Position numbers and translations under genes: made by a program. From a bacterium EF100-94H03 bin56 (GTDB lineage: Bacteria; Pseudomonadota; Alphaproteobacteria; SP197), in contig MPMV01000027.1 in the NCBI GenBank assembly GCA_002238685.1, forward strand, positions 1 through 58,263: DNA of 58,263 nt, given 5' to 3'. The notes under the pieces were generated by a model. It searched no databases. It worked only from the letters and a program-made list of their open reading frames with translations, and was not told the DNA's origin. Positions 11,169 to 57,393 of the stretch are shown here, one piece after another. The stretch's first letter is position 1; each line of letters begins with the position of its first letter.

Positions 11169-11178
11169 TCCCGACTGA

Positions 11179-11211: not shown

Positions 11212-11355
11212 GACGAGCAGGGGAGTGGAAACGGACCGGAACCACGGACCCGGGGATCCGGTCGAGCTTGAGTGCCGGCCTATGGATACCCCCCTCCGGT
11301 GCCCCGGAAACCGCGTCACCCCCTGACTCTACCTCGGACGGGTGTAGCACTCGCC

Positions 11356-13042: not shown

Positions 13043-14201
13043 GTGGGTTCGCTGCACGCAGCGGCGTTCGATGACGCGCACTGGCCGGCGACGTCCGGGC
13101 TGATCGACGAGGCGCTCGGCTCGAGGGGCAGCATACTGGTGATCGGCGATGGGATGAGACAGGCGGCGGTCCAGGTCTTCTTTGCCCGGTTCTGCTTTCG
13201 TGGCGAGCGCCGCGCCGATCTGGAGCAGCTCTGTTTCAGCGTCTATCATCCACAGGACGAAGCGCTCCCGCGGGCCAGGCAGGCTCCCGTCGGCGAGGTG
13301 GTCCAGCCCTCTTCCCTCTACACCGAAGAGGAGAAGAAGACGTCCCTCGCCTACAACGAGGGGTTGCCGTTGCTGCACCTTCGCAAACGATCTGGGTACG
13401 CGCCTCGTTGGGTTGGAGAGATCACGCATCCTCTGGGCGTTGTCCGAACCGGTCGACGGCAAGGGCTGGTCGTTCTCCCAGGTCAATGCGATGAAGGAAT
13501 TGATGCCGCACCTGCGTCAGTTCCTGTCCGCGCGCCAGGCACTGGTCGATGCCCGAGCGCTGGGTACCTCGGCGATAGAGCTGCTGTGCAACGACCGTTT
13601 GGATGTGATCCGGCTCGACCGGCGTGGGCGGATTGTTGCTGCGAACGACCGTGCCCTGGCGATGCTGAACGCGCGCGACGGGCTCCGGGGCGAAGACGGC
13701 TGCCTGCGCGCGGCGCTGCCAGCGGAGGATGCGCGGCTACAGCGGCTTCTGGCTCGGGCGCTGCCCTCGCCGGGCGGGGTCGGCGGTTCCATGCTGGTGA
13801 CCCGCCGGGAGACACTGCCCCGGCTTGCGCTCCATGTCAGCCCGGTCGGTGCGGCGGGCCCGGATTCACACGAAAGCCGAATCGGCGCGCTGGTGCTGGC
13901 CGACGATCCGGCGGTGCGGGCCGGCCTCGAGTCGGCACGTCTCGCCGAGGTGCTCCACCTGACGCCGGCGGAGAGCAGGGTCGCGGCGCTGCTCGTGGAG
14001 GGCCGGAACATTGACGCCGTGGCGGCCGCGATGGGGCGGAGCCGGACCACGGTGAAGTGGCACCTCCGGCACATCTTCGCCAAGCACGACCTTACCCGCC
14101 AATCCGAGCTGGTGCAGTTGGTGAGGTCCCTCTCGGATCTTCGGGGTCCTGCACCCGGGGGCGACGAGACCGACACGGAGACGCCGGAGCGATACCGATA
14201 G
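13043..14201 (+). pseudogene. LuxR-family regulator with a frameshift
   Basis: Two frames together make one LuxR-type protein. The first, from GTG 13043, reads SLHAAAFDDAHWPATSGLID, then GSILVIGDG and VFFARFCFRGERRADLEQL up to about SLAYNEGLPLLH. After a frame change near 13375-13395 the second frame continues with NDLGTRLVGLERSRILWALS, a PAS-like middle and a C-terminal GerE/LuxR helix-turn-helix (LTPAESRVAALLVEG, then TVKWHLRHIFAKHDL) ending at 14201. Length and domain order fit a standard LuxR-type regulator without a known inducer domain. The break may be real or a sequencing error; nothing else in the gene is damaged. Confidence 0.75.
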
Positions 14202-14305
14202 GTCTTCGCGCTCGCTGCACACCTGGAACCTCGCGCCATTCGCCATGGCAACGATCTGCGGGGTCTGGCCTGATGCGCGCGATAATGAGCGCCGCCTGCT
14301 GACGG

Positions 14306-14336
14306 GCCCCGCCTGGCCCTTTCTCCGTGGCGGGGC
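14306..14336 (+). terminator. Hairpin downstream of the LuxR gene
   Basis: GCCCCGCC and GGCGGGGC form an 8-bp stem with a 15-nt loop, followed by TCTT. It lies about 100 bp after the LuxR stop. The rest of 14202-14729 has no gene I can support. Confidence 0.45.
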
Positions 14337-14729
14337 TCTTGGTGGATGGTCGTGGAGATCATGTGGTTTCCTGCCTCACGCAAGCAGCGAGAATGGGCGT
14401 TTTCCCCGAACCACGGCATCCCGACATCATGTTCCTAGATACCTGGAGGGAAATTCAGCGCCCGGACCTCATTCGAGTTGGCCGCGGTCCGGTCCAGTAG
14501 CCCGTGATCGAAGATCGGTGGCTAGCGCCGAGGCTGTCATGTTCGAAGTATCACGCATTCCTGGGACAGAACTTCAGGACCGAACAAGAATGTCAGAAAA
14601 TTGCCGCCGTCTTCGGGCGAACTGAACGCACTGGCGGTCAGGAGGTTCAACGCCGATCGAGGCGGCGCGTGTGCCGTGGTCGTCACCCCGGGCTTGGCTT
14701 GCCTCGTGGAGTTATCGGGAGAACAGGAG

Positions 14730-15251
14730 ATGCGCCGTCTGATCGCTGCGGTACTCTTGGCCTCCTTGGCGCTTGCCGGTCAGGCCGGAAACGCTTTTGC
14801 AACGGACAGTGTCGGCGCCTGCACCGTTGGCCTGATGCTGTCGCTGGGGCGAAGCTGCGAAATCCAGGACGAGGAGGTATCTGCCTCCTCAGCCAACAAG
14901 ATGTACCTCGGCTTTCCGTTGGCACGAAATCCAATCCTGGTGGGCCGAGAACTGGCAATCAAACTGTTCGGACACCCGGACATTCCCGACCACAATCCGA
15001 ACGCCAGGACAGGCGCAGCAAGATTCGCGCTTCGATCGAACGGATGCCCCGGTGAAATAACCGTGTACTGTCGCACGATCAAACAATGGCCGATTGGCCT
15101 AGGCGCGATTTCGAGCAAGGAGATCAGAGCCGGCGGGCGTCTCTGTATTTACGGTCATTTTGAAATGGGCGACTTCAAGGCCACGGAGCTTTCAGATACC
15201 TCCTCTTTGGCGAATCGACGCCGTACCGCAATTGGACTGTCCGCAATTTGA
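14730..15251 (+). CDS. Small secreted protein of unknown function
   Basis: A 173-residue protein with a clear Sec signal peptide: MRRLIAAVLLASLALAGQAG followed by a NAFA-T cleavage site near residue 24. The ATG at 14730 follows a GGAGAACAGGAG purine run. The mature part has five cysteines and no family I recognise. The C-terminal region looks odd: in another frame the text after about 15190 continues as LFGESTPYRNWTVRNLTNFF. A frameshift that replaced the original C-terminus is therefore possible. Confidence 0.5.
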   Translation: MRRLIAAVLLASLALAGQAGNAFATDSVGACTVGLMLSLGRSCEIQDEEVSASSANKMYLGFPLARNPILVGRELAIKLFGHPDIPDHNPNARTGAARFALRSNGCPGEITVYCRTIKQWPIGLGAISSKEIRAGGRLCIYGHFEMGDFKATELSDTSSLANRRRTAIGLSAI

Positions 15252-16407
15252 CGAATTTCTTCAAAGTCTCTCAGCGCCAGAAGGTCGTTGGTTCACAGTT
15301 CAACGACCGATTCAAGGCCGTCAGCCGATTGGCTGGATCGCTTCAACGAAGTCTGCCGATAGCACAGCGGTAGGATCGCGGGCATTGCGGCGACCTGAGC
15401 GTGTTCCGCGTCACAAACGGCATGGCCGATGGACTAGCGAACCACGCCGAGCTTGTCCGGGACTGCTTTGAGTGAGCACTTTGTTCATTCTCGCGGCGCT
15501 CCCCGGAAAACCGGATGTTTTGACCAGAACGCACCAGAACGTTCTTGTTGGGCGACAGTGAATCCCAAGAAATGTTTGCGGTGAGACGGTGCGCAATTCG
15601 AACTGCCGACTCGCAAATCGAAACTCGAGACAAGTCAGCATATCAGAACGCAGTCTCGACTTGAATGTGCCCGGAAGCCTGCCGAACACGGCCTGTTCGC
15701 GAGTCGGTCCGAACCTCCGGGTCATCGAAGAACGATCGCCGGCGTGTGCGGACTCAACGGGTTCGGACAGCGGTTCATCGATGCGAGCGTTTCTGCGGCC
15801 CGGGAACCGACGAGCCGGCCCGAGAAAGATTGAGACTCGACCGCGGCGGTCCGGGAAGCAGGTCGGGAAAACAGACCCAAATGGATGAGGGGGTTCCACA
15901 ACCGGATGACCTCTCTGGTCCGAAGTCCAGAAGTCCGATCGAATTGCGGCAGGGCCGGCGCAAGATGGTCTGCGGTGAACCGGCATCGGGACCGGCGCTT
16001 CAGGCAGGGGGAGTCGCCAAGCCGACCGCCGCTCGAAGTGTTTCGATTCTTCGCTATGTCCGGGCGGCACCAGAGTTTCGCCTACGGCAGAAAATAGAGC
16101 AGAAATTCGGATTGTGATGAGCGACGCGTGTTGGCGTCGTTGAGCTCAAGTGATTTGCGACGAGCAATGTCTCCCTGGCCGACGTTCAAGGCGTCGGGCC
16201 GCCGAACCGATCGGTATCGGCACCGTTGAGGCGAATGGACGCCTCGGGAATCGATCCCCCATACCCACAAAATAATTGCCCCTAGGAACAAAAAGAAACC
16301 CATCTGGACAACCCCGCACAGTTGGGAAGACTTGCCCATTCTTGTTCAGAAAGTTCTTGCACGGCGGCTCTATCGGGCGTGCCGATTAAATGGTTCAGGA
16401 GATGATC
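15252..16407. other. Gene-poor stretch with a LysR remnant
   Basis: Apart from the short LysR remnant at 16009-16085 no gene could be supported here. Short open frames on both strands look like shadows of degraded DNA. The last 150 bp (16250-16407) are richer in A and T and probably hold the promoter of the lipoprotein gene. Confidence 0.35.
16009..16085 (+). pseudogene. Truncated N-terminus of a LysR regulator
   Basis: The fragment reads RPPLEVFRFFAMSGRHQSFA, closely matching LPLEAIRFFDAAGRHQSFA of the LysR gene at 11356-12297. Nucleotide similarity continues through GGGCGGCACCAGAGTTTCGC and then stops abruptly at about 16081. Confidence 0.55.
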
Positions 16408-17757
16408 ATGAGAAATTCACGACTACTCACCTTGACTGTTGTTGCTTGCCTTGCATTGGTGGCGGCTGGCTGTGGCGGTGGCGGTGGCACCTCACCCATG
16501 GCGGACGGCGGTTCGATGATGCCGGACGATGGCTCGACGATGCCGGACGACGGCTCGACGTCGCAACCGCCGACAATGGTTCCGACGCGGACACAGGCCC
16601 TCGCTGACCCGACGACGGCCGTCAATGTAGCGGGTGCAATGACGCAGGCAGCAGAAGCCCTGCCCGGTGCGGGCAGCGTCACGCAGTCCTCGAATGTCGA
16701 CAGCGGAAACATCACCACCGACCGGGTGCAAGTCACGCATCGGTACTCGGACACGGGAGCCGGGACCATTGAGATTCGCAACGGGACAAGATGGTCGATT
16801 GATATCAGTGAGGAAAACCTTCGCGAAATCCCTTACGTCGAAGATCCTTGGATTGGTGTCGAAGCGGGCAAGCGCATCCAAGGCGGCACCTTGTATGTCG
16901 ATCTCTACACGGACGACGACTCAGGATATTCGGAGTACACAACTACGGTTGGTGCCGACTATGACTTCACGTTTCCGGGAATCCAGGTCGGCGGCCAATA
17001 TGTGAGTGAAGGCTCGAACATCGACCTTCCCGCCGAGTTGAACGGAGTTCCAGGGCGAGCCACATGTACGGGCTGTTCGTTCGTATACACCACCGGACAG
17101 CTTTCAATGACCGGTGGCAGCATGACCTTCACCCCCTCGAGCGGATCTCCTGCGACAACTCTCACACCCGGGGCTACCGAGACCTTCTCTGAGTTGGAGT
17201 TGGATGCAGACTATCTGTCAGGCGGGATCTGGATGATCGTTCCCGACGACACGATGAGCGCCGATGACTATGCATTCGGTGCGTTCGCGGATGGCAATGA
17301 TCCGTTTGGGAGCAACATTGCCGCGTTGCAGGGCACGGCGTCCTACGACGGGGACGCGACCGGAGTGTACTCGGACAAGACGGGCGGCTCCACCCAATTC
17401 GGATACTTCGACGGTGACGTCTCGCTGACGGCAATCTTCGGCGGCGGGAGCGACCTCGGCACGATCAGCGGCGCGATCACCAATTTCGAGGTGGACGGTT
17501 CCCCTGCGAATGGTCGGTTGGACTTGGGAACAGCCAGTATCGGATCCGCGAACAGCGGTTTCTTCAGAGGTTCGGTGACCGGCTCCGACGATGAGCACAG
17601 CTACACCGGCCATTGGGGCGGCCAGTTCTTCGGCAATGGGGAAGCTGACGGCAGGCCCGGCTCGGTCGCCGGAACATTCGGCGGTCATTCGACGGACGAT
17701 GTCGTGAGCTTTGTTGGTGCCTTTGGCGCGCACAAGCAGCAGGCGGCCGTGCAGTAA
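16408..17757 (+). CDS. TbpB-like surface lipoprotein
   Basis: A 449-residue lipoprotein. The signal peptide ends in a lipobox (ALVAAGC, Cys about residue 21) followed by a glycine run and a low-complexity linker with MPDDGSTMPDDGSTS repeats. The C-terminal part has the features of the transferrin-binding protein B beta-barrel domain: AIFGGGSDLGTISGAI, FRGSVTGSDDEHSYTGHWGG and the closing GSVAGTFGGH. The ATG at 16408 has CAGGAG at 6 bp. Such lipoproteins are often moved to the cell surface by Slam proteins; a Slam gene is present at 43.5 kb but not adjacent. The ligand is unknown. Confidence 0.75.
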   Translation: MRNSRLLTLTVVACLALVAAGCGGGGGTSPMADGGSMMPDDGSTMPDDGSTSQPPTMVPTRTQALADPTTAVNVAGAMTQAAEALPGAGSVTQSSNVDSGNITTDRVQVTHRYSDTGAGTIEIRNGTRWSIDISEENLREIPYVEDPWIGVEAGKRIQGGTLYVDLYTDDDSGYSEYTTTVGADYDFTFPGIQVGGQYVSEGSNIDLPAELNGVPGRATCTGCSFVYTTGQLSMTGGSMTFTPSSGSPATTLTPGATETFSELELDADYLSGGIWMIVPDDTMSADDYAFGAFADGNDPFGSNIAALQGTASYDGDATGVYSDKTGGSTQFGYFDGDVSLTAIFGGGSDLGTISGAITNFEVDGSPANGRLDLGTASIGSANSGFFRGSVTGSDDEHSYTGHWGGQFFGNGEADGRPGSVAGTFGGHSTDDVVSFVGAFGAHKQQAAVQ

Positions 17758-17899
17758 CTCTCCGCGTAGAGCGAGGCAGGGCGGCCGGAGTGCTGCCCTG
17801 CCTCGCTCGCGTCCTTCATGGTTGCCGGTTCACGGCGCACACGTTGTTGTACGGGCAGTTCGCGACCGCCGGATTCGAAGTGGATCTCGAAAGTCAGCG

Positions 17900-18008
17900 T
17901 CTCCTGGCCGGCCTCGCCCCGGTCGGGCGAGTCGGGGTAGGCCATCAGCGGCCCGGACCAGTGCCGCCTCAGCATCGCCAGGGCGTCCGGGTTCACCTCC
18001 GGCAGGTC
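17900..18008 (-). pseudogene. Possible fragment of a homocysteine S-methyltransferase-like gene
   Basis: The minus strand reads LPEVNPDALAMLRRHWSGPL followed by MAYPDSPD, which resembles the region around the YPNSG motif of homocysteine S-methyltransferase family proteins. The reading ends exactly at the edge of the 401-bp repeat (18006). The assignment rests on one short motif and is weak. Confidence 0.3.
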
Positions 18009-18406
18009 ATGCCGTGAAGGATGGCACGATGTGCAGATCCAAGCGATCCTCCTCAATGGAGATCTGATGCTTCCACGCCAGCGTTGTTCAGCGCGGCCTG
18101 GCGAACCCGAGAAGCGTCTCGCCAGACGCATGCAATCGAGTTCGAGGCTGCTTGAGACCCATCAGGGTTGACTGCTTGAGGCATGCTGCACGGCATCCAG
18201 GTCTCTCTCGATGCTGTCGCCGATGCGCGCCGCGGACGCCTTCACGGTATCGCGGGCAAAGTGAGCGTAACGGGCGGCCGTCTGCTCGGCCACGCCCGGG
18301 TCGGCACCACCGCGAAACACGCCCACCTGGTGCGCGATGCCGAGAAGGCCGCCGCCGCTCGGACCGGCGACAGCATCGGCAGCGGTCTTGTTGCCACGCC
18401 ATAAGC
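18006..18406. repeat. 401-bp repeat, copy 2, with back-to-back integrase 3' ends
   Basis: This is the second copy of the block at 8464-8864, in the same orientation and of identical length. The minus-strand integrase tail reads TAARYAHFARDTVKASAARI (18290 downwards) and the plus-strand tail reads RLLGHARVGTTAKHAHL (from 18273). The tyrosine of the plus-strand motif has changed to histidine here (KHAHL). It ends 60 bp upstream of a Phd-type antitoxin gene. Confidence 0.85.
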
Positions 18407-18466
18407 ATTCATTTCTTCGGATTATACGTATATTGAGGCAAGTCCCCGTTGCCCAGGAAGCCTGCC

Positions 18467-47752: not shown

Positions 47753-50056
47753 CTATAACGCCGTGCGCCAGCCGGCCAGGAGGACGACTCGCGGCCGGGC
47801 ATCGCCGTCGTGGCCGGGGTGGCGGGTCGCGATGGCGCCCAGGCGGAAATCGCCTTCGGCGAACGGTCGGTCCCAGCGCACAGCGAGGTCGAGTTGTCGG
47901 CCAGTGGGCGTCACGTCGGCGGAGAACTGTTGGCGCACGATCCCGCCTTCTTTGGTGCGGCCCACGGGGACGGAAAGCCGGACGTCGCCTCCCTCCACCC
48001 GCAGAGGCTGGGCGAGCGTGACCTGCAGCATGCCGTTCGTGCCGATCGGCCGGGTGCCGTGGACGGCGAAGGCGCTGGTCGCAAGCGGCGACACGCCGGC
48101 GATTATGCCGTCCTGCGCGCGGGCGTGGACGACGCCGACTTCCGGCCCGCCGCTCAACCGCCAGTCGCCCACGCGCTGATCGATCTCCAGACCGAGCGAG
48201 ACGGAATGGGCGCCAAGAGCGCCGAATGCTCCCTCAGCTGTGGTGGAAAGCATGCTCTGGCGCTCGGAAAACCAGCCGACCCGCAAGCCAAGCGGCGCGT
48301 CCTGCGCGCGCCACGAGAGCGACGCGCCGGAGGCAGGCAGCAGGTTGTCGATGCCCTCGGTCGTGAAGGCCGTCGCGACAATGCCGTCCGCCCGGCTCAT
48401 CGTCAGGCTGAGCGAATTCCGCGCGAGTGGCGCATGGCCGATGCCGGCCACGTCCGGAGTCTTGCCCAGATCGAGGCGCAGCGCGGCAGGCGGCGCGATC
48501 CCGACCGGACCGGTGTCGTCCGCCGGCCGCTCGGGCGTCGGCGCCGACATGAAGTCGCTGACCTGCGTGCCGAACCAGGGCTCAGCGGATGATGCGACAA
48601 GGCGGCCAAGGTCGTACCAGAACGGCGCGCCCAGCGCGTCGAAGGCGACAACCTCCCGGCCGGACAATGCGCTCAAAAGACCGGTGCCGAGCGCTCCCCC
48701 GAGCTGGAAGCCGGATTGCTGCACAAGAGCGCCGGCTCCTCCGACCGTGTCGCCGGCGGTGACGACCGGCGCGCCAACCGGCGACAGCGCGGCGCCTAGG
48801 TCCATCAACCCGTGGCCGTAGACGGCGCGGTCGGCGTAGCGACCGCCGCGGTCCGCGGTATGGAAGAGCCGCGTCACGAGGTCCTCGCCCGGGAGCTGGC
48901 CACGGAACATCTGGGTCATCAGGGCGAGGCCGCCGGAGACCATGGGAGCCGCGAAGGACGTTCCGCTCAGGAGCGCGTAGCTGCGAATGAGTTCGCCCTG
49001 CCAGGTCCCGAAGAAGGCGGCCCAAACACGGTGACCCGGAGCGGCGATGCACCAGTCGGCCGCGATGCCGCAACGGGCCGAGAAGGGTGCGATTTCACCG
49101 TCCTCGCCGGTCGCCACGGCCGCGATGGAGTGGCCTCGAAGCTCCTGGATACGCGCCATCATGCCCGCGTAAAGGTCGGGAGAGCTGGCGTCCAGGCGGC
49201 CCGCCGCCCGGCCGAGGTAGTCGATCTCCGAGTCGCCAACGCAATTCTCGCTGCCGGCGATGCACAGCTTGTCATGGCTGTTGCCGGCCGCCCATACCAG
49301 GATCGTCTTGTCCGTCCGGTCGGCTTGGGCGAGCGTCTCGATCGTCTTGCTCCGCGCGGCCCGAATGGCAGATGCGTCGTAGAACTCGACCACGCCGCTC
49401 ACTCCGAAGCTCAGGTTCAGAACATCCAGACCGTGCGAGAGAACGTCGGAATAGAGCTCCGCGTCTTCATCGTCGAACTGCGCCAGTTTGGAGAGCGGGA
49501 AAGCCTCGATAGGCGTGTCCGGCGGAGGCAGCGAGCCCAGCGGAATCGCGAACATCCTGATCGTGGCGTAGGGGGCGACGCCTGTGTACGGGCCTTTGTG
49601 CATCGGGTTCGCCCTGCCCGCGATGATGCTGGCGACAGCGGTGCCGTGCGAGAGGTTATCCGCACCGGTCTCGTCCACAGCGCCCAGGAAGAACTCTTCG
49701 GTCACCTCGCCTGTCGCCGCTCCTTCAACAAAAGTGCCGTGGGCGAGGTCGATACCGGTGTCGATCACGCCCACGGTGACGCCGGTGCCAGGCCGCTCCA
49801 CGCCGCGAACGGTTCGCAGGTGTGCCCAGGCTTCCGGGAGGTCGATTGCCGCCAGGGACCAGCGATCCTCGAAGACCGGGGCGGAGGCGATGTCCTCGGC
49901 GACGCTTTTGACCCGGGCGAGGTAGGTGTCCACGGAAAGGCATCCCTCCACCGTCTCGACCGGGCACCGGGCCACACCTGAGCCGCCTCCTCCGCCGCAG
50001 GAGGTGAGAAACAGCAAACTTGCGCCGGCCAGCGTCAGGTATGTTCGCAATGCCAT
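47753..50056 (-). CDS. Subtilisin-family (S8) lipoprotein protease with C-terminal barrel-like region
   Basis: A 767-residue secreted protease, second of its kind in the window. A lipobox signal (LTLAGASLLFLTSC, Cys 20) is followed by a glycine run. The S8 catalytic residues are Asp about 99 in VGVIDTGIDLAHGTF, His about 137 in NLSHGTAVASIIAG and Ser about 367 in LSGTSFAAPMVSGG. The oxyanion-region AAGNS is intact. The last 270 residues are strand-rich (LRLDLGKTPDVAGIGHAPLA, SLSLTMSRADG, RQLDLAVRWDRPF) and the protein ends RVVLLAGWRTAL. It reads towards the Slam remnants. Domain layout equals that of the protease at 34980. Confidence 0.87.
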   Translation of the reverse strand: MALRTYLTLAGASLLFLTSCGGGGGSGVARCPVETVEGCLSVDTYLARVKSVAEDIASAPVFEDRWSLAAIDLPEAWAHLRTVRGVERPGTGVTVGVIDTGIDLAHGTFVEGAATGEVTEEFFLGAVDETGADNLSHGTAVASIIAGRANPMHKGPYTGVAPYATIRMFAIPLGSLPPPDTPIEAFPLSKLAQFDDEDAELYSDVLSHGLDVLNLSFGVSGVVEFYDASAIRAARSKTIETLAQADRTDKTILVWAAGNSHDKLCIAGSENCVGDSEIDYLGRAAGRLDASSPDLYAGMMARIQELRGHSIAAVATGEDGEIAPFSARCGIAADWCIAAPGHRVWAAFFGTWQGELIRSYALLSGTSFAAPMVSGGLALMTQMFRGQLPGEDLVTRLFHTADRGGRYADRAVYGHGLMDLGAALSPVGAPVVTAGDTVGGAGALVQQSGFQLGGALGTGLLSALSGREVVAFDALGAPFWYDLGRLVASSAEPWFGTQVSDFMSAPTPERPADDTGPVGIAPPAALRLDLGKTPDVAGIGHAPLARNSLSLTMSRADGIVATAFTTEGIDNLLPASGASLSWRAQDAPLGLRVGWFSERQSMLSTTAEGAFGALGAHSVSLGLEIDQRVGDWRLSGGPEVGVVHARAQDGIIAGVSPLATSAFAVHGTRPIGTNGMLQVTLAQPLRVEGGDVRLSVPVGRTKEGGIVRQQFSADVTPTGRQLDLAVRWDRPFAEGDFRLGAIATRHPGHDGDARPRVVLLAGWRTAL

Positions 50057-50555
50057 GTTCGCCCCAAGGAACTGTGCTTCGAGGATACAGCAGGCTGAGG
50101 CGGGTTAGCGACCCTCCGACGAGGTGCACGCTTCGGGCCGCTTCCGAAAGATGGATACAGTCCGGTACCACGGCACATCCGCACGGCCTGCGACTGGTGA
50201 ATGGAGCGCGCAACCTTCCCAGGAGTGCAACCGGACCGTCTTCAAGCACCCCCTGGAAGAGATGGGCAGGAACTGCATCGCAATAGTCGAAGTCGGTGAT
50301 TTCCCGGGCATTCAGCAGCACACCGAACAGGGCCGAGCCTGGCTGATTCCCTTGCCTTCGGACTCGGCCTCAACCTGGTCCCCACGGCAGTCCAGTACCT
50401 GCCGGGCGTTCTCCACACCATGGCCGTCTCCGGCCTGCTTCCCACGGCCGTCATCGTCATCGTGCCGGACCTGATTCTGCCCGACGACATCTGACAAGGG
50501 AAACCCGGCTGTGTCGCCGATCAGCACAGCGTGCCCCGAGCGCTGCGCCCTCCTG
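50057..50555. other. Intergenic region with a 90-bp repeat
   Basis: No gene is supportable. The region holds the promoter of the minus-strand protease and one copy of a 90-bp repeat (50181-50270) shared with 55073-55162. Confidence 0.4.
50181..50270 (+). repeat. 90-bp repeat, copy A
   Basis: It aligns without gaps to 55073-55162 at roughly 75-80 percent identity by eye. Shared blocks are GGTGAATGGA, CGCGCAACC, TGCAAC and CCTGGAA followed by GGGCAGG. On the minus strand both copies read a similar peptide (FQGVLEDGPVALLGRLRAPF here, FQEVLKEGPVAFPERLRGPF in copy B), which suggests they derive from a coding sequence. Confidence 0.6.
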
Positions 50556-51401
50556 TCAGGATCCTTCGGGCAGGTAGCCGAAGCGTTTCATCTGCTCGCC
50601 ATGGGTCTCGCAGATCCGCATGACCTGGCTCTCGCTCAGTCCATCCTTCCAGGCCCCGGCCTTGCCGCGGCGGAAAAACCTCTTCTGGTGCTGCGACCTC
50701 TCCTTGAACCCACCAGCCGCCTCCTGACTCTCCAGGGTCCGGAACGACGAGTGACGGATGGCCCGCAATAACCTCTGGCGCGACGGCTTCAGCCCCAGGA
50801 ACCGCGTCACCTCTCCGAAAGTCATGGAAGGCCTCTCCAGCATGTCCTCGTAGCGGACCACATGCAGGCGCTCACTGGTCCTGCCAGTCCAGCTCGCCAC
50901 GTGCTGTGACCAGCTTCCCGTGAAGATCGAGACATTGTTGCGTTCCGGGTTGTGGGGCATCTCCAGGTAGTCGGTCGCCATGATCTCGATTGCCTGGTCA
51001 AGACCGGTTCCCATGAAGTCTGCCGACGACACTGCCACGTCAAGCGGGTTACGCACGATGTAAATGGCGCCCGATGTCACGCCCAGATTGATGGTCGAGT
51101 GCCCATGCACCGTCAGCAGGGCATTGTGTGTCTTGCAGAAGATGGATCCCGGCTGCCCCCGGGCGATCAGTTCACAGACCTTCGGTCGCATGGCAGCTAC
51201 ATCCTCGGGCGACCATTCGCTCACCGGGCGTTTGTCGACCATCCTGAACCACATCAGCGAGCCGTCGCTCTGCAGGATCTCGCCCTGCATCCTGTTCAGG
51301 TCGGCCGGCCTCGCCTCGTTGCGGAAGAGATTGTGCAGGAACGCTCGCATCCACGTGTTGCCCGACTTCGGATAGCTGGCCAGCCAGACGATGTCGCCCA
51401 T
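50556..51401 (-). CDS. Sulfotransferase (PAPS-dependent)
   Basis: A 281-residue cytosolic sulfotransferase that would transfer sulfate from PAPS to an unknown acceptor. The 5'-phosphosulfate loop is visible as VWLASYPKSGNTWMRAFL (about residues 5-22) and the 3'-phosphate motif as IYIVRNPLDVAVSS (about 113-126). The C-terminal RFLGLKPS and the FRRGKAGAWKDGLSESQ segment are typical of the Sulfotransfer_1 family. Start and end are clear. A decayed copy of its 3' end follows the relaxase gene at 26343-26590. Confidence 0.9.
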   Translation of the reverse strand: MGDIVWLASYPKSGNTWMRAFLHNLFRNEARPADLNRMQGEILQSDGSLMWFRMVDKRPVSEWSPEDVAAMRPKVCELIARGQPGSIFCKTHNALLTVHGHSTINLGVTSGAIYIVRNPLDVAVSSADFMGTGLDQAIEIMATDYLEMPHNPERNNVSIFTGSWSQHVASWTGRTSERLHVVRYEDMLERPSMTFGEVTRFLGLKPSRQRLLRAIRHSSFRTLESQEAAGGFKERSQHQKRFFRRGKAGAWKDGLSESQVMRICETHGEQMKRFGYLPEGS

Positions 51402-51421
51402 TCACAAGACCCTCAACGAAA

Positions 51422-51447
51422 GGGAGCGGCCACAAAGGGCCGCTCCC
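51422..51447 (-). terminator. Terminator of the porin gene
   Basis: GGGAGCGGCC and GGCCGCTCCC form a perfect 10-bp stem with a 6-nt loop. Read on the minus strand it is followed by TTTCGTT. It lies 32 bp after the porin stop. Confidence 0.8.
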
Positions 51448-51478
51448 CAAAGACGCTCGAGATATCAGATGACGTTGA

Positions 51479-52705
51479 TCAGAAGCTGATCCCCATCGCG
51501 ATACCGGCAAAGGTGGTGTCGCCCTTTTGGGTGCCAACGTCAAAGGAGTCCTCGCCGACCACACCGGCAAGATTGATGCCAGGACCGAGATTGTAGTTGG
51601 CCATCAGACGGGCGTAACCGTTGTCGGTAGTTGTGCCAGTGCCGTCGTCATCCTGGGTCTTTTCGCCATAGTTGGCACTGACAACCCATGGGCCCTCGCC
51701 ATACATGATGCCGAAATCATACTGCACGAGGTCGTCTGCGCCCATCACGTCGCTGTCCGTGACCCTGTAGGATCCGCCGACAGACACTCCGGACATGGTC
51801 ACTACCACACCTGCTGCCCAATCGGTCACGGTGCGGCCGGGCTTGGCAGTCACAGCTTTCTTGCCAGGATCACCAGGTTCGGCGGGTACTGCATCGGCGG
51901 CCGCTACCGCCGGAACGTCCTTGCTGGCATACCCGACAGAAACCGTTACGCCGGCATCCCCGAAGGCGCCGTCGTAGCGAGCGCCAACCCCGTACAAGTC
52001 GCCTCCATCGCTTCTGCTCGCTGTGGCGCTTCGTGCTTCCTTGGTTGCCTCAGGCGCATAGGACAGACCAAACTGGAAGCCGTTGATGACCGGCGAGAAG
52101 TACATGACGGAAGCATCGTCATTGCTGGCGGCGCCGTCGGGAAATGTGGAGTGCCAGTTGGAGACGGAACCGGCGGTGTTGAGGCCACCGCTGAAGCTTC
52201 CCACCCAGTAAGGCGTGTTGATGCCATAGAAGTACGTGGCGTAAGGTGCCGCCGTAGCCATCGAGTAGCTCGCGGGATCGTCATTGCCGACGCGAATTGT
52301 TCCGAACGAGCCTTCAATGTACATGTAGGTCTCGTCACCTTGGTCGCTGCTCTGTTCACCTTCGATCTCGATGCGGATACCGACCTCGACACCACTGTCG
52401 AGAACCGTCGAGCCGGCGAACCTGAGTTCAACGTCATTGGAAATCGCCAGATCGTCCGTCTCGCCATTCGCATCGGCTGTGTCCAGCTCATTGTCAACGA
52501 CAGCGATACCCCAGTGCGAATTGCCGCCGATAGTCAACGAGATCGGCTCCCCCCCCCCCCCCCCCCCCGCCCCCCCCCCTGGTGCCACCTCATTGTCAAC
52601 GACAGCGATACCCCAGTGCGAATTGCCGCCGATAGTCAACGAGATCGGCTCGGCTGCCATCTCCTCGGCAGCTACACCAGTGGTTGCACTCATTTGTATA
52701 AACAA
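51479..52705 (-). CDS. Outer-membrane porin lacking its signal peptide (separated 5' end)
   Basis: A porin of the Gram-negative porin_4 type: strand-rich, LTIGGNSHWGIAVVDNELD near the mature start, SFGTIRVGNDDPASYS, and a terminal FAGIAMGISF ending in phenylalanine. The open frame begins at 52705 with FIQMSATTGVAAEEMAAEP and has no signal peptide. Codons from 52684 (ACC ACT GGT GTA) onwards continue in frame from the isolated start at 55343-55390 if the segment between the 11-bp inverted repeats is flipped. In the present orientation it is not exportable and has no proper promoter. It also carries an in-frame 63-bp duplication separated by a G-tract (see 52487-52651). Confidence 0.85.
   Translation of the reverse strand: MFIQMSATTGVAAEEMAAEPISLTIGGNSHWGIAVVDNEVAPGGGAGGGGGGEPISLTIGGNSHWGIAVVDNELDTADANGETDDLAISNDVELRFAGSTVLDSGVEVGIRIEIEGEQSSDQGDETYMYIEGSFGTIRVGNDDPASYSMATAAPYATYFYGINTPYWVGSFSGGLNTAGSVSNWHSTFPDGAASNDDASVMYFSPVINGFQFGLSYAPEATKEARSATASRSDGGDLYGVGARYDGAFGDAGVTVSVGYASKDVPAVAAADAVPAEPGDPGKKAVTAKPGRTVTDWAAGVVVTMSGVSVGGSYRVTDSDVMGADDLVQYDFGIMYGEGPWVVSANYGEKTQDDDGTGTTTDNGYARLMANYNLGPGINLAGVVGEDSFDVGTQKGDTTFAGIAMGISF
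52487..52651. repeat. 63-bp direct repeat split by a long C/G homopolymer inside the porin gene
   Basis: Two identical 63-bp copies (52487-52549 and 52589-52651, shift 102 bp, in frame) encode the same mature porin start LTIGGNSHWGIAVVDNE twice. Between them lies a run of 20 C, one G, 10 C and TGGTGCCAC, read as a glycine-rich insert (PGGGAGGGGGG) on the coding strand. Confidence 0.9.
52674..52684 (-). repeat. Left recombination site of the invertible segment
   Basis: ACACCAGTGGT, inside codons 8-11 of the present porin open frame (TTGV). Its inverse complement occurs at 55391-55401. Confidence 0.7.
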
Positions 52706-52708
52706 ATG
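52691..52708. promoter_or_regulatory. Palindrome between the left site and the recombinase promoter
   Basis: CATTTGT, ATAA, ACAAATG is a perfect 7-bp inverted repeat with a 4-bp spacer. It lies 6 bp inside the left recombination site and 10 bp upstream of a TATAAT, so it is placed to act as an operator or as an accessory recombinase binding site. Confidence 0.5.
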
Positions 52709-52717
52709 TTAACAGTT

Positions 52718-52723
52718 TATAAT
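52718..52723 (+). promoter_or_regulatory. -10 element of the recombinase operon
   Basis: A perfect TATAAT lies 77 bp upstream of the first recombinase gene in a locally AT-rich patch. A weak -35 (TTGTAT, 52694) with 18-bp spacing overlaps the palindrome at 52691-52708. Confidence 0.45.
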
Positions 52724-52800
52724 GCTTCTCTGAGAATTGCGGAATCGGGGGGTTCATTCGTGATTCTTCCCATGCCTGCAATTCCAGCGGGGGAAGAATC

Positions 52801-53928
52801 ATGGCCAAGACACGGCTGACCGAAAGTCGAATCAAGGCACTGCGGCCCCGGAAGAGTGTTCGTGATGTTCGGGACTTGCATCTGAGAGGCTTCGGCGTAC
52901 GTGTCTACCCGTCCGGTCGCAAACGCTACTTCATTCACATTCAGCACGAGGGACGCCGTACCTGGAACGTTGTAGGTGACGCTGCCGTCACACGTCTTGC
53001 AGACGCCCGGGAAAAGGCACGCACAATGATGGTGGCGACACGGAGGGGAGCCTGTCCACAAACGGATCAGACACTGTTCGAGACAGTCGCCGCAGAGGTC
53101 TTCCACCGTTACGGACGCAGCAACTGGAAGCCCGGGACATTCAAGGTCAACGGGTATTATCTGAAGAACCAGCTCCTGCCGTGGTTCCAGGGGCGCCAGG
53201 TCGCAGACATCACGACTGCAGACGTGCAGAACTGGTTTGCTTCCCTCCACAAGACTCCCGTGTCAGCCGACCGCGCCGCGCCGGTTCTCTCGGTCATCAT
53301 GGCCTGTGCGGAGACATACGGGTACAGAACCGAAGGCAGCAATCCGTGCAGGGACATCAAGCGTTACCGCAGGCAGGGAAGGGAGCGGTTCCTCTCCGAG
53401 GAGGAAATCAATCGGATTGGGGTCAGCCTGAGGAGGCACCAGGACACCTGCCCGACGTTGGTGGCGATCATACGGCTTCTCCTGTTGACCGGCTGCCGCA
53501 AGACAGAGTTGGTGACGCTCCGGTGGAGAGATTACCGGAACGGACACATTCATCTAGGCGATTCCAAGGTGGGGCCACGGATGGTCTGGCTCTCGGCGCC
53601 GGCACGCGAGATCCTGGATGGCCTTCGCAGGAAATCGACGTGGGTTTTCCCGTCACCCCGGACCGCAAGGTCACTGACCACCGCCCCTGTCGAACGCTTC
53701 TGGCAACGTGTTCGCTCGGAAGCCGGACTGCAGGATGTACGCCTTCACGATCTTCGCCACTCCTACGCCAGCGTTGCTGTCAAGCAGGGTGAGAGCATCG
53801 TGACCATCGGCCGGCTGCTTGGCCACAACAACCCGGAGACAACGCTGAAATACACGCATCTTGGTGACGACAGAGTGGTGGAAGCCGCCCGGGCCATGGG
53901 CGCCGTTCTTGGGGCACATGCGCGATGA
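52801..53928 (+). CDS. Tyrosine recombinase 1 of the invertible segment
   Basis: A 375-residue site-specific recombinase. An N-terminal arm-binding region (MAKTRLTESRIKALRPRKSV, GFGVRVYPSGRKRYFIHI) and a core-binding domain precede the catalytic domain. Active-site residues are visible: Arg about 233 in LLLTGCRKTELVTLRW, Lys about 256 in GDSKVGPR, His about 316 and Arg about 319 in LHDLRHSYAS, His about 342 in LLGHNNPETT and the nucleophile Tyr about 351 in LKYTHLGDD. It overlaps the start of the second recombinase by ATGA, so both are made together. ATG 52801 follows GGGGGAAGAATC. Its probable job is inverting the segment it sits in. Confidence 0.9.
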   Translation: MAKTRLTESRIKALRPRKSVRDVRDLHLRGFGVRVYPSGRKRYFIHIQHEGRRTWNVVGDAAVTRLADAREKARTMMVATRRGACPQTDQTLFETVAAEVFHRYGRSNWKPGTFKVNGYYLKNQLLPWFQGRQVADITTADVQNWFASLHKTPVSADRAAPVLSVIMACAETYGYRTEGSNPCRDIKRYRRQGRERFLSEEEINRIGVSLRRHQDTCPTLVAIIRLLLLTGCRKTELVTLRWRDYRNGHIHLGDSKVGPRMVWLSAPAREILDGLRRKSTWVFPSPRTARSLTTAPVERFWQRVRSEAGLQDVRLHDLRHSYASVAVKQGESIVTIGRLLGHNNPETTLKYTHLGDDRVVEAARAMGAVLGAHAR

Positions 53929-55055
53929 ACCGGAGGGTGAAACTGACAGATTCCCTGGTCGGAAGACTCAAGCCGGGCGCTCGCGAGTTTACGGTCCGGG
54001 ACACCCTCGTGCCGAACCTCGGGGTTCGGGTTCATCCTTCAGGGGGGAGCAGCTACGTACAATTCGGCAACGGAACGAAGGTATCGCTCGGTCCCACCAT
54101 GCACGTGACGGTCGAAGAGGCTCGCTTCCGGTGTCTTGCCCTCCTGACGGACGGACACTCCCGCAAGGATCCGGTTCCCCTGTTCCGGGATTTCGCTGCG
54201 AATGAATGGAAGGAGTCGTGGATCCATCGGAGCAAGCCCGCCACGATCGACTGGCGGGAAAGGTGCCTGAAACGTCAGTTGCTCCCAGCATTCGGCGCCC
54301 ATCGTCTGGACAGGGTCACCCCGGCGATGGTTCATCGGTGGTTCGACAACTACAGCAGAACCGCTCCGGGTGGTGCCAACCACTGCCTCAAGATCCTTCG
54401 CCAGGTTTTCAACCATGCGATCTCCTGCGACCACATCACCTCGAACCCGGCGAGGAACGTCAGACCCAACCGCAGAAGGAAACTCACCCGTTTCCTTTCG
54501 AGCGAAGAGCTTGGACGTTTGCATTGTGCGCTCGACCGCCATGATCGCGAGACCTCTCACAGGCGACCGCACCGTCAACAGATCGACATCATTCGCCTCC
54601 TCCTTCTGACCGGATGCCGAAAGAGCGAGATCGTCCGCCTTCGCAAGAATGAGGTGTCCGGTGACTGTCTTCACCTGGTCGACAGCAAGACGGGACCACG
54701 TACCGTGTATCTGAACGCAGAGGCGCGAGCCATCATCGATCGCCGCATGTCAGGCAACAGTGCCTTCGTGTTTCCGTCGCCGAGAGATCCGGAGCGTCCT
54801 CTCGGCGGCGAACTCGCGCTTTGGTACACGATTCGAAAGGAGGCAGGCATCGAGGATGTCCGCCTCCATGATCTGCGTCACACTTATGCCAGCCATGCCG
54901 TCATGCAGGGAACACCCCTGCCGGTCGTGTCGCGCTTGCTTGGACATGCGCAGCCGACCATGACAATGCGGTACGCACACATGGGCGACCGGGAAACCGA
55001 GGCGGCCGCGGAACGCATCGGAACCGTGATCGCCCGAATGCTGGACATCGGATGA
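53925..55055 (+). CDS. Tyrosine recombinase 2 of the invertible segment
   Basis: A 376-residue tyrosine recombinase, same layout as recombinase 1 but clearly different in sequence. The arm-binding region reads VKLTDSLVGRLKPGAREFTV followed by NLGVRVHPSGG. Catalytic residues: Arg about 232 in LLLTGCRKSEIVRLR, Lys about 255 in DSKTGPR, His about 315 and Arg about 318 in LHDLRHTYAS, His about 341 in LLGHAQPTMT and Tyr about 350 in MRYAHMGDRE. The start codon lies inside the stop of recombinase 1 (ATGA). Two intact, paired recombinases suggest a heteromeric complex or opposite directional preference. Confidence 0.9.
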   Translation: MNRRVKLTDSLVGRLKPGAREFTVRDTLVPNLGVRVHPSGGSSYVQFGNGTKVSLGPTMHVTVEEARFRCLALLTDGHSRKDPVPLFRDFAANEWKESWIHRSKPATIDWRERCLKRQLLPAFGAHRLDRVTPAMVHRWFDNYSRTAPGGANHCLKILRQVFNHAISCDHITSNPARNVRPNRRRKLTRFLSSEELGRLHCALDRHDRETSHRRPHRQQIDIIRLLLLTGCRKSEIVRLRKNEVSGDCLHLVDSKTGPRTVYLNAEARAIIDRRMSGNSAFVFPSPRDPERPLGGELALWYTIRKEAGIEDVRLHDLRHTYASHAVMQGTPLPVVSRLLGHAQPTMTMRYAHMGDRETEAAAERIGTVIARMLDIG

Positions 55056-55072
55056 CGGGTGAAGGTACTCTC

Positions 55073-55162
55073 GCACGGTCGGTGATCGGTGAATGGACCG
55101 CGCAACCGTTCCGGAAATGCAACTGGACCTTCCTTGAGCACCTCCTGGAACGGACGGGCAGG
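55073..55162 (+). repeat. 90-bp repeat, copy B
   Basis: Second copy of the repeat at 50181-50270, 17 bp after the stop of recombinase 2 and inside the invertible segment. At present both copies point the same way; flipping the segment would put them in opposite orientation. Confidence 0.6.
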
Positions 55163-55321
55163 CAGCGTCACTCAGCCTGAGGTTGTGGCTGTGGACAGTT
55201 TCTGTTGCAATAGTGCAACACCTGTTGACCTTGCGCCATACATGCTTTGACCGGATCGTGGTATCGCGCTACCAAACCCTTGCCAGCACCGGTTGTGCCG
55301 GCAATTCCTTGAATAGGATCC

Positions 55322-55336
55322 TATAATGAAAGGAAG
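55322..55336 (+). promoter_or_regulatory. -10 element and ribosome binding site of the detached porin start
   Basis: TATAAT at 55322-55327 is followed by AGGAAG at 55331-55336, six bases before the ATG at 55343. The TATAAT lies very near the start codon and no good -35 is seen 16-18 bp upstream, so the transcription start may be elsewhere; the ribosome binding site is convincing. Confidence 0.5.
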
Positions 55337-55342
55337 TGAACA

Positions 55343-55411
55343 ATGAAAAAGGCCCTTATGGGAACCACTGCCCTTGTGGCGGCCGCGGTGACCACTGGTG
55401 TGACCCAGTAG
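55343..55411 (+). pseudogene. Detached 5' end of the porin gene (signal-peptide codons)
   Basis: ATG 55343 starts MKKALMGTTALVAAAVTTG, a typical porin Sec signal, and then hits a stop after VTQ because the sequence beyond the right recombination site is unrelated. Up to codon 16 this is exactly what the porin body at 52684 lacks. In this orientation only a 22-residue peptide can be made. Confidence 0.85.
55391..55401 (+). repeat. Right recombination site of the invertible segment
   Basis: ACCACTGGTGT, inverse complement of 52674-52684. It covers codons 17-20 (TTGV) of the detached porin start. Confidence 0.7.
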
Positions 55412-55785
55412 GTCAGCACTAATAGCGCCACATCCTTTCATTGACGCACTACCTTCTCTCCCACTAATACCTCACGTTATCCGATAGATGAGCGGCCTGT
55501 CAACGGCGTTGTTGCGCTGTCTCGATAACCGCAAGATATGGCTCCTGTATCGATCAGGAGTTGCATTTCCGGAAAAACACTATCATCAATATATGATCCG
55601 CTGTGAGAGGCTCATTCTGCGGGCCTCCGACGCATCTGCCATCGCGTGTGCCGCTTTACCCTGGGTAGACACACGGTAATCTTGCGCTATCCTGAATCCA
55701 CAGACATGTTGGTCGTCCGCTTTGTGGTCATTGTGCCCGCACCTTTGCGAACTGACGCAGGGCGTCAGTCTCTGCCAGATACGCA
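55412..55785. other. Intergenic stretch right of the invertible segment
   Basis: No gene could be supported. The sequence is less GC-rich than the surroundings. It lies outside the right recombination site. Confidence 0.35.
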
Positions 55786-55989
55786 GACCATAACATGACC
55801 ATAAGACTGGGAATGCGCGTGGAAACCTGCCGGACCACATTTTGACCACAAGAGGGACCCGGCGCCATCGTCACGGTGGCCACAAGTTGACCATAAGAAG
55901 TACAAGCATCATCGCTCACCGTGGCCACAACATGACCATAAGAAGGGTCTTGCACCATCAGTCGCGGTGACCATAGTCTGACCACAGGA
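55786..55989 (+). repeat. Array of TGACCATAAGA-type repeats
   Basis: The 11-mer TGACCATAAGA or close variants begin at 55796, 55843 (TGACCACAAGA), 55888, 55933, 55968 (TGACCATAG) and 55979 (TGACCACAGGA), plus GACCATAA at 55786. Spacings of the first four are 47, 45 and 45 bp. Two units share a longer match including GTGGCCACAA. The last unit abuts the ribosome binding site of the ribbon-helix-helix gene at 55997. Likely binding sites of a DNA-binding protein, for example iterons or relaxosome sites. Confidence 0.7.
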
Positions 55990-55996
55990 GCAGCCC

Positions 55997-56299
55997 ATGA
56001 AGGACACCACAAGGAAGCAGCGCACGGTGATGATGACCGATGCCGAGTGGCAGGACCTCAAGGAGACCGCCGCAGCCGCCGGCATGCGTGTCTCGGCCTT
56101 CATCATCCACCGCCTCGCGGTGGCGAGCGGCACTGCCGGGGACGCCCGCATCGGCGACACGCTGGCCCGCATGGAGCGCTCGCTCGCCTGTCTCGAGGAG
56201 ATCGAGCGGCTGCGCCTCGCCGATGACCCGGACACCTGGAAGACCATCAACGAGAGGGTGGACGCCCGTCTCGCACTGGAACGGAGGCTCGACCGGTGA
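55997..56299 (+). CDS. Ribbon-helix-helix protein 1, MobC-like
   Basis: A 100-residue protein with an N-terminal ribbon-helix-helix pattern: KQRTVMMTDAEWQDLKETAA, then AAGMRVSAFIIHRLAV, the form found in mobilisation accessory proteins and plasmid regulators. A helical C-terminus follows (LARMERSLACLEEIERLRLA). The ATG follows CAGGAGCAGCCC. It directly follows the TGACCATAAGA repeats, which it probably binds, and overlaps the next gene by GTGA. The relaxase gene is far away (23.5 kb), so a link to it is only a possibility. Confidence 0.6.
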   Translation: MKDTTRKQRTVMMTDAEWQDLKETAAAAGMRVSAFIIHRLAVASGTAGDARIGDTLARMERSLACLEEIERLRLADDPDTWKTINERVDARLALERRLDR

Positions 56300-56574
56300 C
56301 CGGCGATCGCGCGCGACAACACAACTACTACTGCACGGCGAAGCAGCAGGCGATCATCGCCAGGCGGGCGAAGAAGGCCGGCATGAGCCGCTCGGCGTTC
56401 ATGGTCGACTGCGCGCTTCACGACGAACCGGCGGGCGCGGAGCTGATGCCGGCGCCGGCGGAACACAAGGCCCTCCTCGATTATCTCCCGGCCACGGCCG
56501 ATATGGTGACGCGCCTGATGGCGCCGGTGCCGGACCTTGGCATGTCCGTCATCGACGCGCTCGAGTGTGAGTGA
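56296..56574 (+). CDS. Ribbon-helix-helix protein 2, MobC-like
   Basis: A 92-residue protein beginning with GTG inside the stop of the preceding gene. It repeats the same pattern, NYYCTAKQQAIIARRAKKAG, then MSRSAFMVDCALHD, and has a short helical tail (EHKALLDYLPATADMVTRLM). This is the usual layout of a second relaxosome or copy-number regulator. The two proteins are probably made in fixed ratio. Function inferred from pattern and position only. Confidence 0.55.
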   Translation: MTGDRARQHNYYCTAKQQAIIARRAKKAGMSRSAFMVDCALHDEPAGAELMPAPAEHKALLDYLPATADMVTRLMAPVPDLGMSVIDALECE

Positions 56575-56658
56575 CGGCCAGAAACTGCACTTATTTGATG
56601 AAGTCAGCGGTTGATCGCTTCACGTTCATGTGCCCGCGGTTGGACGTTGCTCGGTGCA

Positions 56659-56726
56659 GCTGTGGGTAAGTAGCCCGCCGCAGCGACTATCAGGGTTAAG
56701 GCGGCGGCGGGCTACTTATCCACAGC
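56659..56726. promoter_or_regulatory. 23-bp inverted repeat with DnaA-box-like sequences
   Basis: GCTGTGGGTAAGTAGCCCGC and CGC pair with the arm at 56704-56726 (22 of 23 bp) around a 22-nt loop. The right arm contains TTATCCACA (56716-56724), identical to the DnaA-box consensus; the left arm contains its one-mismatch inverse. It could be a replication origin element, a terminator for the ribbon-helix-helix operon, or both. The rest of 56575-56958 shows no gene. Confidence 0.5.
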
Positions 56727-56958
56727 GGGCAAACGCGATGGTGTCCGTTCTGGCGTTCCGTCTGGCGCTGGTTTTGAGGATCTGACAGCGGGAGCGCGGA
56801 CGCTACACTGGGGCCGTCGAGAACGATGCGGCGCCAGCTCGGTTTGCTGGCCAGCAACAGCCAGCGCCGCACCCTCCGAGCCATGCAAGGCGCGGCCCGC
56901 AGGCGCAGTATCGTGCGTGTTCGGGCGTGGGTCCACCCCGTTCTCATCGGTTGCCGCG

Positions 56959-57393
56959 ATGAAGAACACCGCCCGCCTGTTCACCTGTGCTTCGTGCCGT
57001 CGCCAGGTCGTTCTCTGCCAGCGCTGCGACCACGGCAACATCTACTGTTCGCGGGCCTGCAGCGGCCGGGCGCGGCTACGGTCCGTAAGGCGGGCGGGAC
57101 AGCGCTACCAGACCAGCCGCCGCGGCCGTCACAAGCATGCCGAGCGCCAGCGGCGCTACCGTGAGCGCCGCCGATGTCCGGCACCGGCAAGGCCGGCCTC
57201 AACGCAGAAAGTGACGCATCACCCTTTGACCACGACCAGGCGACGTCCTCTTGTGGCGCCCATGCCAATGGGGCGGTCCGGAACATGGCCTTTCGGGCAC
57301 GACCACCGCGCCAGGGTGTTGCGTTGTACGCGCTGCGGCCGGTTCTGCGGCCGGACGGTCTATCCGGGCCTGCGCCCGACACGAAGGGAGTGA
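56959..57393 (+). CDS. Small zinc-ribbon protein of an IS21-type element
   Basis: A 144-residue basic protein. Two Cys pairs at the N-terminus (FTCASCRRQVVLCQRCDHGN, then IYCSRACSG) and a further CXXC near the C-terminus (LRCTRCGRFCG) suggest a zinc-binding fold. The middle is rich in arginine (RGRHKHAERQRRYRERRR). Such a gene precedes the transposase in a group of IS21-like elements. It ends 2 bp before the transposase start. The frame is open from 56917, but ATG 56959 fits the cysteine-rich start. Confidence 0.55.
   Translation: MKNTARLFTCASCRRQVVLCQRCDHGNIYCSRACSGRARLRSVRRAGQRYQTSRRGRHKHAERQRRYRERRRCPAPARPASTQKVTHHPLTTTRRRPLVAPMPMGRSGTWPFGHDHRARVLRCTRCGRFCGRTVYPGLRPTRRE

What the first reader, a model, noticed from the sequence alone, without database searches (positions are those of the whole stretch)
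52674..55401. Self-encoded DNA inversion switch of an outer-membrane porin, captured OFF
The porin body (minus strand, 51479-52684) lacks promoter and signal peptide. The missing parts (ribosome binding site, ATG, 16 signal codons) lie on the plus strand at 55331-55390. Both halves end in the same 11 bp, ACCACTGGTGT, as an inverted pair, and the two tyrosine-recombinase genes lie between. Flipping the segment on paper joins MKKALMGTTALVAAAV to TTGVAAEE without frame error and yields a complete 417-residue porin. Recombinase-driven inversions of surface genes are known in other phyla, but I know of no porin split within its signal peptide with its own two recombinases inside the segment.
Basis: partly seen in the sequence, partly recalled or inferred. 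Interest (0 to 1): 0.95.

Follow-up and report, generated by a model that had tools for sequence, protein, structure and literature searches.

The report
Flip-switch porin with island recombinases
In the draft genome of an alphaproteobacterium, a porin gene is cut in two at its export signal by a segment that carries two recombinase genes between two inverted copies of one 11-base site, and this segment would likely flip to join or separate the two halves, as sister loci with joined and unjoined porins suggest.

Summary
Observation confirmed: the porin body without signal peptide (SP), two tyrosine recombinases, the RBS/ATG/16 signal codons and the 11-bp inverted site pair lie where stated, and a join would be in frame. 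The inversion reading rests on comparison, not on reads. In this genome and two relatives of its genus, 11 porin bodies with a 5' end fall into two classes that differ exactly at the site: 2 are fused to the SP, 9 abut a recombinase-unit end. At one syntenic position the body has the SP in one species and the recombinase end in the other. Two sister units have an SP-less body on one side and the joined porin on the other, so the design is probably an alternator within a porin-sulfotransferase array, not a lone on/off switch. New: the recombinases belong to a family of island integrases (19 strong matches in this genome), the site is that family's attachment site, and the right flank is an island terminus, so the SP now reads into a 22-codon dead end. 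The 417-residue figure includes a 34-residue insert that is probably an assembly artefact. Activity is untested; the orthologue in G005 is also OFF.

The parts
50556..51401 (-). sulfotransferase gene downstream of the porin; the same pairing recurs in sister cassettes
   Evidence: Sulfotransfer_1 E 4.3e-30; all five G006 porin cassettes are followed by one (one of the five tested in Pfam)
51479..52684 (-). porin body without start codon region and signal peptide
   Evidence: Porin_4 E 2.8e-37; alignment A1
52549..52579 (.). poly-C run beside a duplicated stretch, probable assembly artefact inside the porin body
   Evidence: absent from P0001, otherwise identical at 370 of 370 residues
52674..52684 (-). 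left recombination site (attL-like: porin body | recombinase-unit end), core AGTGG
52685..52800 (+). left end of the recombinase unit; lacks the usual GCACC-NNN-GGTGCTAA motif of the island copies
52801..53928 (+). tyrosine recombinase A (recA), with arm-binding domain
   Evidence: Phage_integrase and Arm-DNA-bind_3; dN/dS 0.19 against the G005 orthologue
53925..55055 (+). tyrosine recombinase B (recB), overlapping A by 4 nt
   Evidence: Phage_integrase; dN/dS 0.20 against the G005 part
55056..55330 (+). leader; its 3' part is conserved in C93 and G006; presumed to hold the promoter (none detected by consensus scan)
   Evidence: 55165-55395: 90% and 88% identical to C93 and G006; scan without hit here; TGCAAC/GTTGCA candidate arm sites
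55331..55390 (+). RBS-like stretch, ATG (55343) and 16 signal-peptide codons
55343..55411 (+). present dead-end frame: 22 codons and stop
   Evidence: sequence
55391..55401 (+). right recombination site (attR-like: signal peptide | island end), core AGTGG
55397..56565 (+). island terminus GGTGTGACCC... and the DNA shared with contig C4
   Evidence: 90% identity to C4 over 1189 columns, window 55379-56565; one of 8 island ends found
55997..56574 (+). two NikA-like mobilization genes of the island (55997-56299, 56296-56574)
   Evidence: NikA-like E 6.7e-06 (just below the curated cut-off) and 7.5e-08

Best explanation
A segment carrying two tyrosine-recombinase genes plus the ribosome-binding site and signal peptide of a porin lies between two inverted copies of one 11-bp site, and it is predicted to flip by site-specific recombination so that the signal peptide is either joined to the neighbouring porin body or pointed away from it. 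Shown by sequence: the halves, sites, orientation and in-frame geometry; the same signal peptide joined at the same site in two sister loci; bodies without signal peptide abutting a recombinase-unit end in nine. Inferred: recombinases A and B exchange strands within the short core next to CACACC, in the signal-peptide region of the gene. In two sister loci the unit sits between two divergent porin bodies, so flipping would select which porin, and probably its downstream sulfotransferase, is made. Also inferred: the recombinases are domesticated island integrases. The present window has the attL and attR pair that island integration into a porin would leave, but with the porin halves facing opposite ways. 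One flip would give an intact porin and an attP-like junction.
For: Junction classes: of 12 porin copies in G000, G005, G006 one fragment was dropped; of 11, 2 carry the SP and 9 abut a recombinase-unit end, with the break at the site. Syntenic porin a (C3) and porin 4 (G006:C104) differ exactly there. C93 and G006 units lie between divergent porins. Five-base cores agree across each of three units: AGTGG, AGTCG, CGAAG. Purifying selection on the recombinases, dN/dS 0.14-0.20. The porin a body, OFF here, is found with SP in P0020 (99.1% over 326 aa). Of 14 recombinase copies whose left site could be tested, only the window's has an inverted 11-mer partner downstream; 0 of 13 others within the DNA fetched.
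Against: No reads. Window, G005, P0001 and P0003 all lack the SP. Only the window unit has intact A, B, SP and both sites: C93 lost most of the recombinases, C3 lost the SP, the G006 unit is a remnant with an intact pair elsewhere, and G005 recB stops near residue 322 close to a contig end. The sites differ at the base after the shared 11. G006 porin 5 has core AGTGG, unlike the G006 SP site (CGAAG). No promoter was detected. P0020 is a 1117-bp contig of masked source, and its C-terminus differs from porin a.
Confidence: 0.7

Rival explanations
1. Ordinary island damage: islands integrated into the porin's attachment site, as in an aminotransferase gene of this genome, and later rearrangement left the halves inverted. 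The porin is dead and nothing switches.
For: The recombinases belong to the island family; an aminotransferase gene is cut the same way; the right junction is an island end; both known orthologues are OFF.
Against: Plain insertion keeps the two halves in one direction; here they face opposite ways. recB, leader and SP form one conserved unit in several loci of two species. The recombinases stay under purifying selection. Sister units join the SP to porins at the same site.
Confidence: 0.15
2. Slow shuffling only: site-specific exchange happens between species or strains, but too rarely to be a phase switch.
For: Differences are seen between species and paralogues only; several units are decayed.
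Against: Selection on the recombinases; porin a body seen with and without SP at 99.1% identity.
Confidence: 0.1
3. The window arrangement is a mis-assembly among repeats.
For: Draft in 102 contigs, a poly-C artefact inside the porin body, many repeated recombinases and island ends.
Against: The left junction type recurs in G005 from another assembly, and P0001 reads through the same SATTGV junction. The recB-leader link recurs in C3. The right junction has the structure of eight island ends.
Confidence: 0.05

Closest known systems
Bacteroides fragilis SusC/RagA intergenic shufflon (PMC5729914, passages read)
   Same: Inverted repeats at the start of outer-membrane protein genes; inversion brings alternative genes behind one promoter.
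   Different: Other phylum, SusC/D gene pairs, inverted repeats overlapping the start codon downstream of an invertible promoter; here a classical porin cut in its signal-peptide region, with two recombinase genes inside the segment.
Dichelobacter nodosus Omp1 inversion (Moses 1995; seen only as a reference entry in PMC5903667)
   Same: By title: multiple site-specific inversions control phase and antigenic variation of an outer-membrane protein.
   Different: Details not seen; gammaproteobacterium and recombinase arrangement are recall, not a call.
Mycoplasma variable lipoprotein shufflons, e.g. Vpma with XerC (PMC11868660, passages read)
   Same: A recombinase chooses among silent surface-protein genes by adding the expression part through inversion.
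   Different: Lipoproteins of wall-less bacteria, a single recombinase; here a porin and a pair of recombinases of the island-integrase family.
GInt genomic islands (PMC5385486, seen only in a search listing)
   Same: Islands with their own tyrosine integrases.
   Different: GInts are defined by four genes (title); here two recombinases, and the porin units use them without an evident island of their own.

Membership tests
Recombinase-driven invertible switch of a surface protein | recombination sites in inverted orientation at both ends of the segment | tested here: met
   11-bp pair
Recombinase-driven invertible switch of a surface protein | intact recombinase gene(s) linked to the segment | tested here: met
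   open frames, Pfam matches and active-site motifs
Recombinase-driven invertible switch of a surface protein | both orientations present at one locus in one population | tested here: inconclusive
   only across species and paralogues and one database protein of masked source
Recombinase-driven invertible switch of a surface protein | orientation changes expression | not testable with these tools
   needs RNA or protein data
Island integrases of this genus | recombinase A within the island-integrase tree | tested here: met
   tree of 32 rows
Island integrases of this genus | left end ACAC[CG]-N6/7-GCAC | tested here: met
   17 of 17 other copies and the window
Island integrases of this genus | GCACC-NNN-GGTGCTAA at the left end (up to 2 mismatches) | tested here: not met
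   16 of 17 other copies have it, C12 and the window do not
Bacteroides SusC/RagA shufflon | SusC/RagA-type outer-membrane proteins | tested here: not met
   the body is Porin_4
GInt islands | four essential genes in the recombination module | not tested
   two recombinase genes seen in a row; no comparison with GInt genes was made

The most novel reading that the evidence does not exclude
A genomic-island integrase pair has been turned into a surface-protein selector: its integration reaction, run inside one chromosome between inverted partners, switches a porin off by writing attL and attR, and its reverse switches it on by restoring attB and attP. Because islands use the same site, islands and porin cassettes compete for one signal-peptide expression site, building arrays of silent porin-sulfotransferase cassettes in a whole group of host-associated bacteria.
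Probability: 0.35. Interest if true: 0.82.

Novelty: new variant of a known kind. Interest (0 to 1): 0.66.

Why it matters
If it flips, it is a classical porin controlled by DNA inversion, cut in its signal-peptide region, and run by enzymes whose relatives move genomic islands. It would show a path from integrase to invertase with both kinds of copy still in one genome, and would make surface variation of these (probably sponge-associated; my inference) alphaproteobacteria testable by counting junctions in metagenome reads. Ten literature searches in open PMC papers listed no title or abstract that describes such a porin switch; subscription papers are mostly not held.

Tried and rejected
Plasmid collection: no match to 50500-57000. 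Viral contigs: SP pattern 0 hits; porin alignment none; recA one distant locus. SP pattern in 16 genomes of the order: G000 and G006 only; in 385 genomes drawn from the class: G000 only (G006 was not among those drawn). SP/leader DNA in 16 genomes of the family: G000 and G006 only. Genome contigs: 3 loci. JAPPGE010000014.1 (MAG RHO1_bin_48) has the length of G006:C104, and JAJEHK010000057.1 (Alphaproteobacteria MAG) the length of G005:C323, so I take them as the same contigs. Simple ON/OFF pairs could not be read from the 120 listed database proteins, because the collection is clustered at 90% identity. Rejected: a phase-variable poly-G tract in the porin (absent from the otherwise identical P0001). 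Rejected: a complete island on G006:C54, because its left core GTAATAC and its island-end core TGATTTC do not match; no island with both ends on one contig was shown. One-SP-per-contig test: of 12 contig lengths with two or more listed porins (38 porins), 8 have one SP-bearing porin, 4 none, 0 more; chance 8766 of 200000 shuffles, weak support only. It groups by each cluster's longest contig and covers 120 of 137 proteins. DNA hairpins at three left ends: z -1.6 to -1.9, not decisive. The C-terminal half of the aminotransferase gave no Pfam match (68 aa); its hisC identity is recall.

Full report
What is there. The window is the whole contig C99 of a 4.53-Mb draft genome in 102 contigs. The two ends share ACCACTGGTGT, inverted. 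Sixteen codons precede the site on one side, and 402 codons, stop included, start at it on the other, so a join would be in frame. At present the signal peptide (SP) reads on through TTGVTQ to a stop.

Is it chance? An inverted 11-mer between two random 160-bp stretches of the window occurs in 243 of 20000 draws, so the repeat alone is about a 1% event. Its position is more telling: in C93 of the same genome and in C104 of G006 the same SP is joined to a porin body at this very place (DNA 90% and 88% identical over the leader and SP).

Junctions. In G000, G005 and G006 one search finds 12 porin copies; one (C3:1910-2245) lacks its start and was dropped. Of the other 11, 2 are fused to the SP. 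Nine abut left-end-type sequence of a recombinase unit, with recombinase A intact in 4 (window, G005, C3 b, G006 porin 5) and a remnant in 5. The downstream side is alike in all, the upstream side is one of two classes, and the break lies in the site. Five other genomes of the genus have porin matches that start at the first residue of the SP (G001, G002, G007, G008, G009); G003 and G004 have none. The split state is therefore likely derived.

Both orientations. Relative to the block porin-sulfotransferase, C93 has the unit pointing at the porin and the window has it pointing away; these are paralogous loci. C3 and G006:C104 are syntenic: porin a / porin 4, sulfotransferase, coiled coil, then recB, recA, site, porin, sulfotransferase and a Xan_ur_permease gene (C3 10527-12717 with G006 11099-13308, 85.5%; 13082-15879 with 13525-16318, 83.7%; 17535-17960 with 17989-18411, 93%). 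At this shared position porin 4 has the SP in G006, while porin a has the recombinase-unit end in C3. So halves were probably exchanged at the site after the species parted. The porin a body is also found with the SP in P0020 (99.1% over 326 residues), from a 1117-bp contig of masked source.

Alternator. In C93 the unit lies between porin 1 (joined) and porin 2 (SP-less); in G006 between porin 4 (joined) and cassette 3 (SP-less). Flipping would trade one for the other. G006 has two further silent bodies with the same CGAAG core, so a shufflon-like choice among four porins is possible there, with the intact recombinase pair next to porin 5 acting in trans (inference).

Where the enzymes come from. 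The genome has 19 matches to recombinase A at E 1e-70 or better, the window's included. Left ends were read for 17 other copies: 17 of 17 read ACAC[CG], 6-7 bases, GCAC; 16 of 17 carry GCACC-NNN-GGTGCTAA with up to 2 mismatches, not C12 and not the window. They behave as island integrases: an aminotransferase gene (PF00155, E 6.7e-20; hisC by recall) ends at a recombinase unit on C23, and what looks like its missing end starts from an island end on C66 with the same seven bases CGGTGAC. That 68-aa end has no Pfam match of its own. The island end GGTGTGA(A/C)CCA..AGGTCA occurs in 8 copies with unrelated flanks among the loci fetched, the window's right junction among them. In a tree of 32 recombinase A proteins the porin-linked ones form two groups, window with G005 (100/100) and C3 with G006 (100/98), inside the island family; a single origin of the label appears in 0% of bootstrap trees. 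Both groups are under purifying selection (dN/dS 0.14-0.20; recB of G005 over 316 codons only).

Core. The C23 and C66 ends agree over seven bases, and C9 and C21 (paired by core only, host gene not checked) over CTGGAA. The three porin units agree over five: AGTGG, AGTCG, CGAAG. GTTGCA lies 163 bases inside 8 of 8 island ends. TGCAAC lies at -63 to -66 and/or -24 to -31 from recombinase A in 16 of 17 other left ends (not C32; the window has none there). TGCAAC/GTTGCA stand at -178/-188 from the site in the three SP leaders. These could be arm-type sites for the arm-binding domain PF13356; inference only.

Reading of the window. It holds body|recombinase-unit end and SP|island end, the attL and attR types of this system. 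Plain island insertion would leave SP and body in the same direction; they face opposite ways. Either an island landed on the second porin of an alternator and the displaced body lies beyond the contig end, or the unit flipped between the porin and an attP-like junction. In both cases one flip would give an intact porin. That the flip happens is inferred.

Against it. No reads. The orthologous G005 body and the twins P0001 and P0003 start without the SP. Among SP-bearing database proteins the one closest to this porin's G005 orthologue is P0002 (86% to G005, 76% to the window; P0031 and P0004 are about as close to the window). Most sister units are partly decayed: only the window has A, B, SP and both sites intact. 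The promoter scan found nothing in the leader. The G005 recombinase B match ends at residue 322, close to a contig end.

Artefact. The 34 extra residues around the poly-C run are absent in P0001, identical at its 370 residues, so the length 417 should read about 383.

Literature. Closest systems were seen as passages only (PMC5729914, PMC11868660, PMC5903667). Dichelobacter Omp1 was seen only as a reference entry, and GInts only as title and start of abstract in a listing. That the genus is sponge-associated is my reading of a bin name and recall, not a call.

Noticed in passing
window 52549-52579 and the duplicate beside it: Poly-C run with a duplicated stretch of the porin gene on both sides; absent from the otherwise identical P0001, so probably an assembly artefact.
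   Followed up: partly
L030 about 3622-4020 and L160 about 1302-1508: An aminotransferase gene (probably hisC) is cut by an island; the two ends share the seven bases CGGTGAC.
   Followed up: partly
L045 1031-1576: IS110-family transposase gene whose 3' end runs into the same type of island end as in the window (PF02371).
   Followed up: partly
window 51423-51448: GC-rich hairpin GGGAGCGGCC...GGGCCGCTCCC between porin and sulfotransferase, also seen by eye between these genes in C93 and G006; possible attenuator or RNA stabiliser.
   Followed up: no
window 55109-55124 and 55559-55574: Perfect 16-bp inverted repeat, one arm in the leader of the unit and one inside the island; the island arm recurs in other island copies. 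Candidate arm-type binding sites.
   Followed up: partly
L095 2-2368: TrwC-type relaxase with helicase domains beside porin cassette 1; related DNA lies in C93, so the array borders on mobile-element genes.
   Followed up: partly
window 47753-50056: Large subtilase-family protein on the minus strand next to the porin cassette (PF00082).
   Followed up: no
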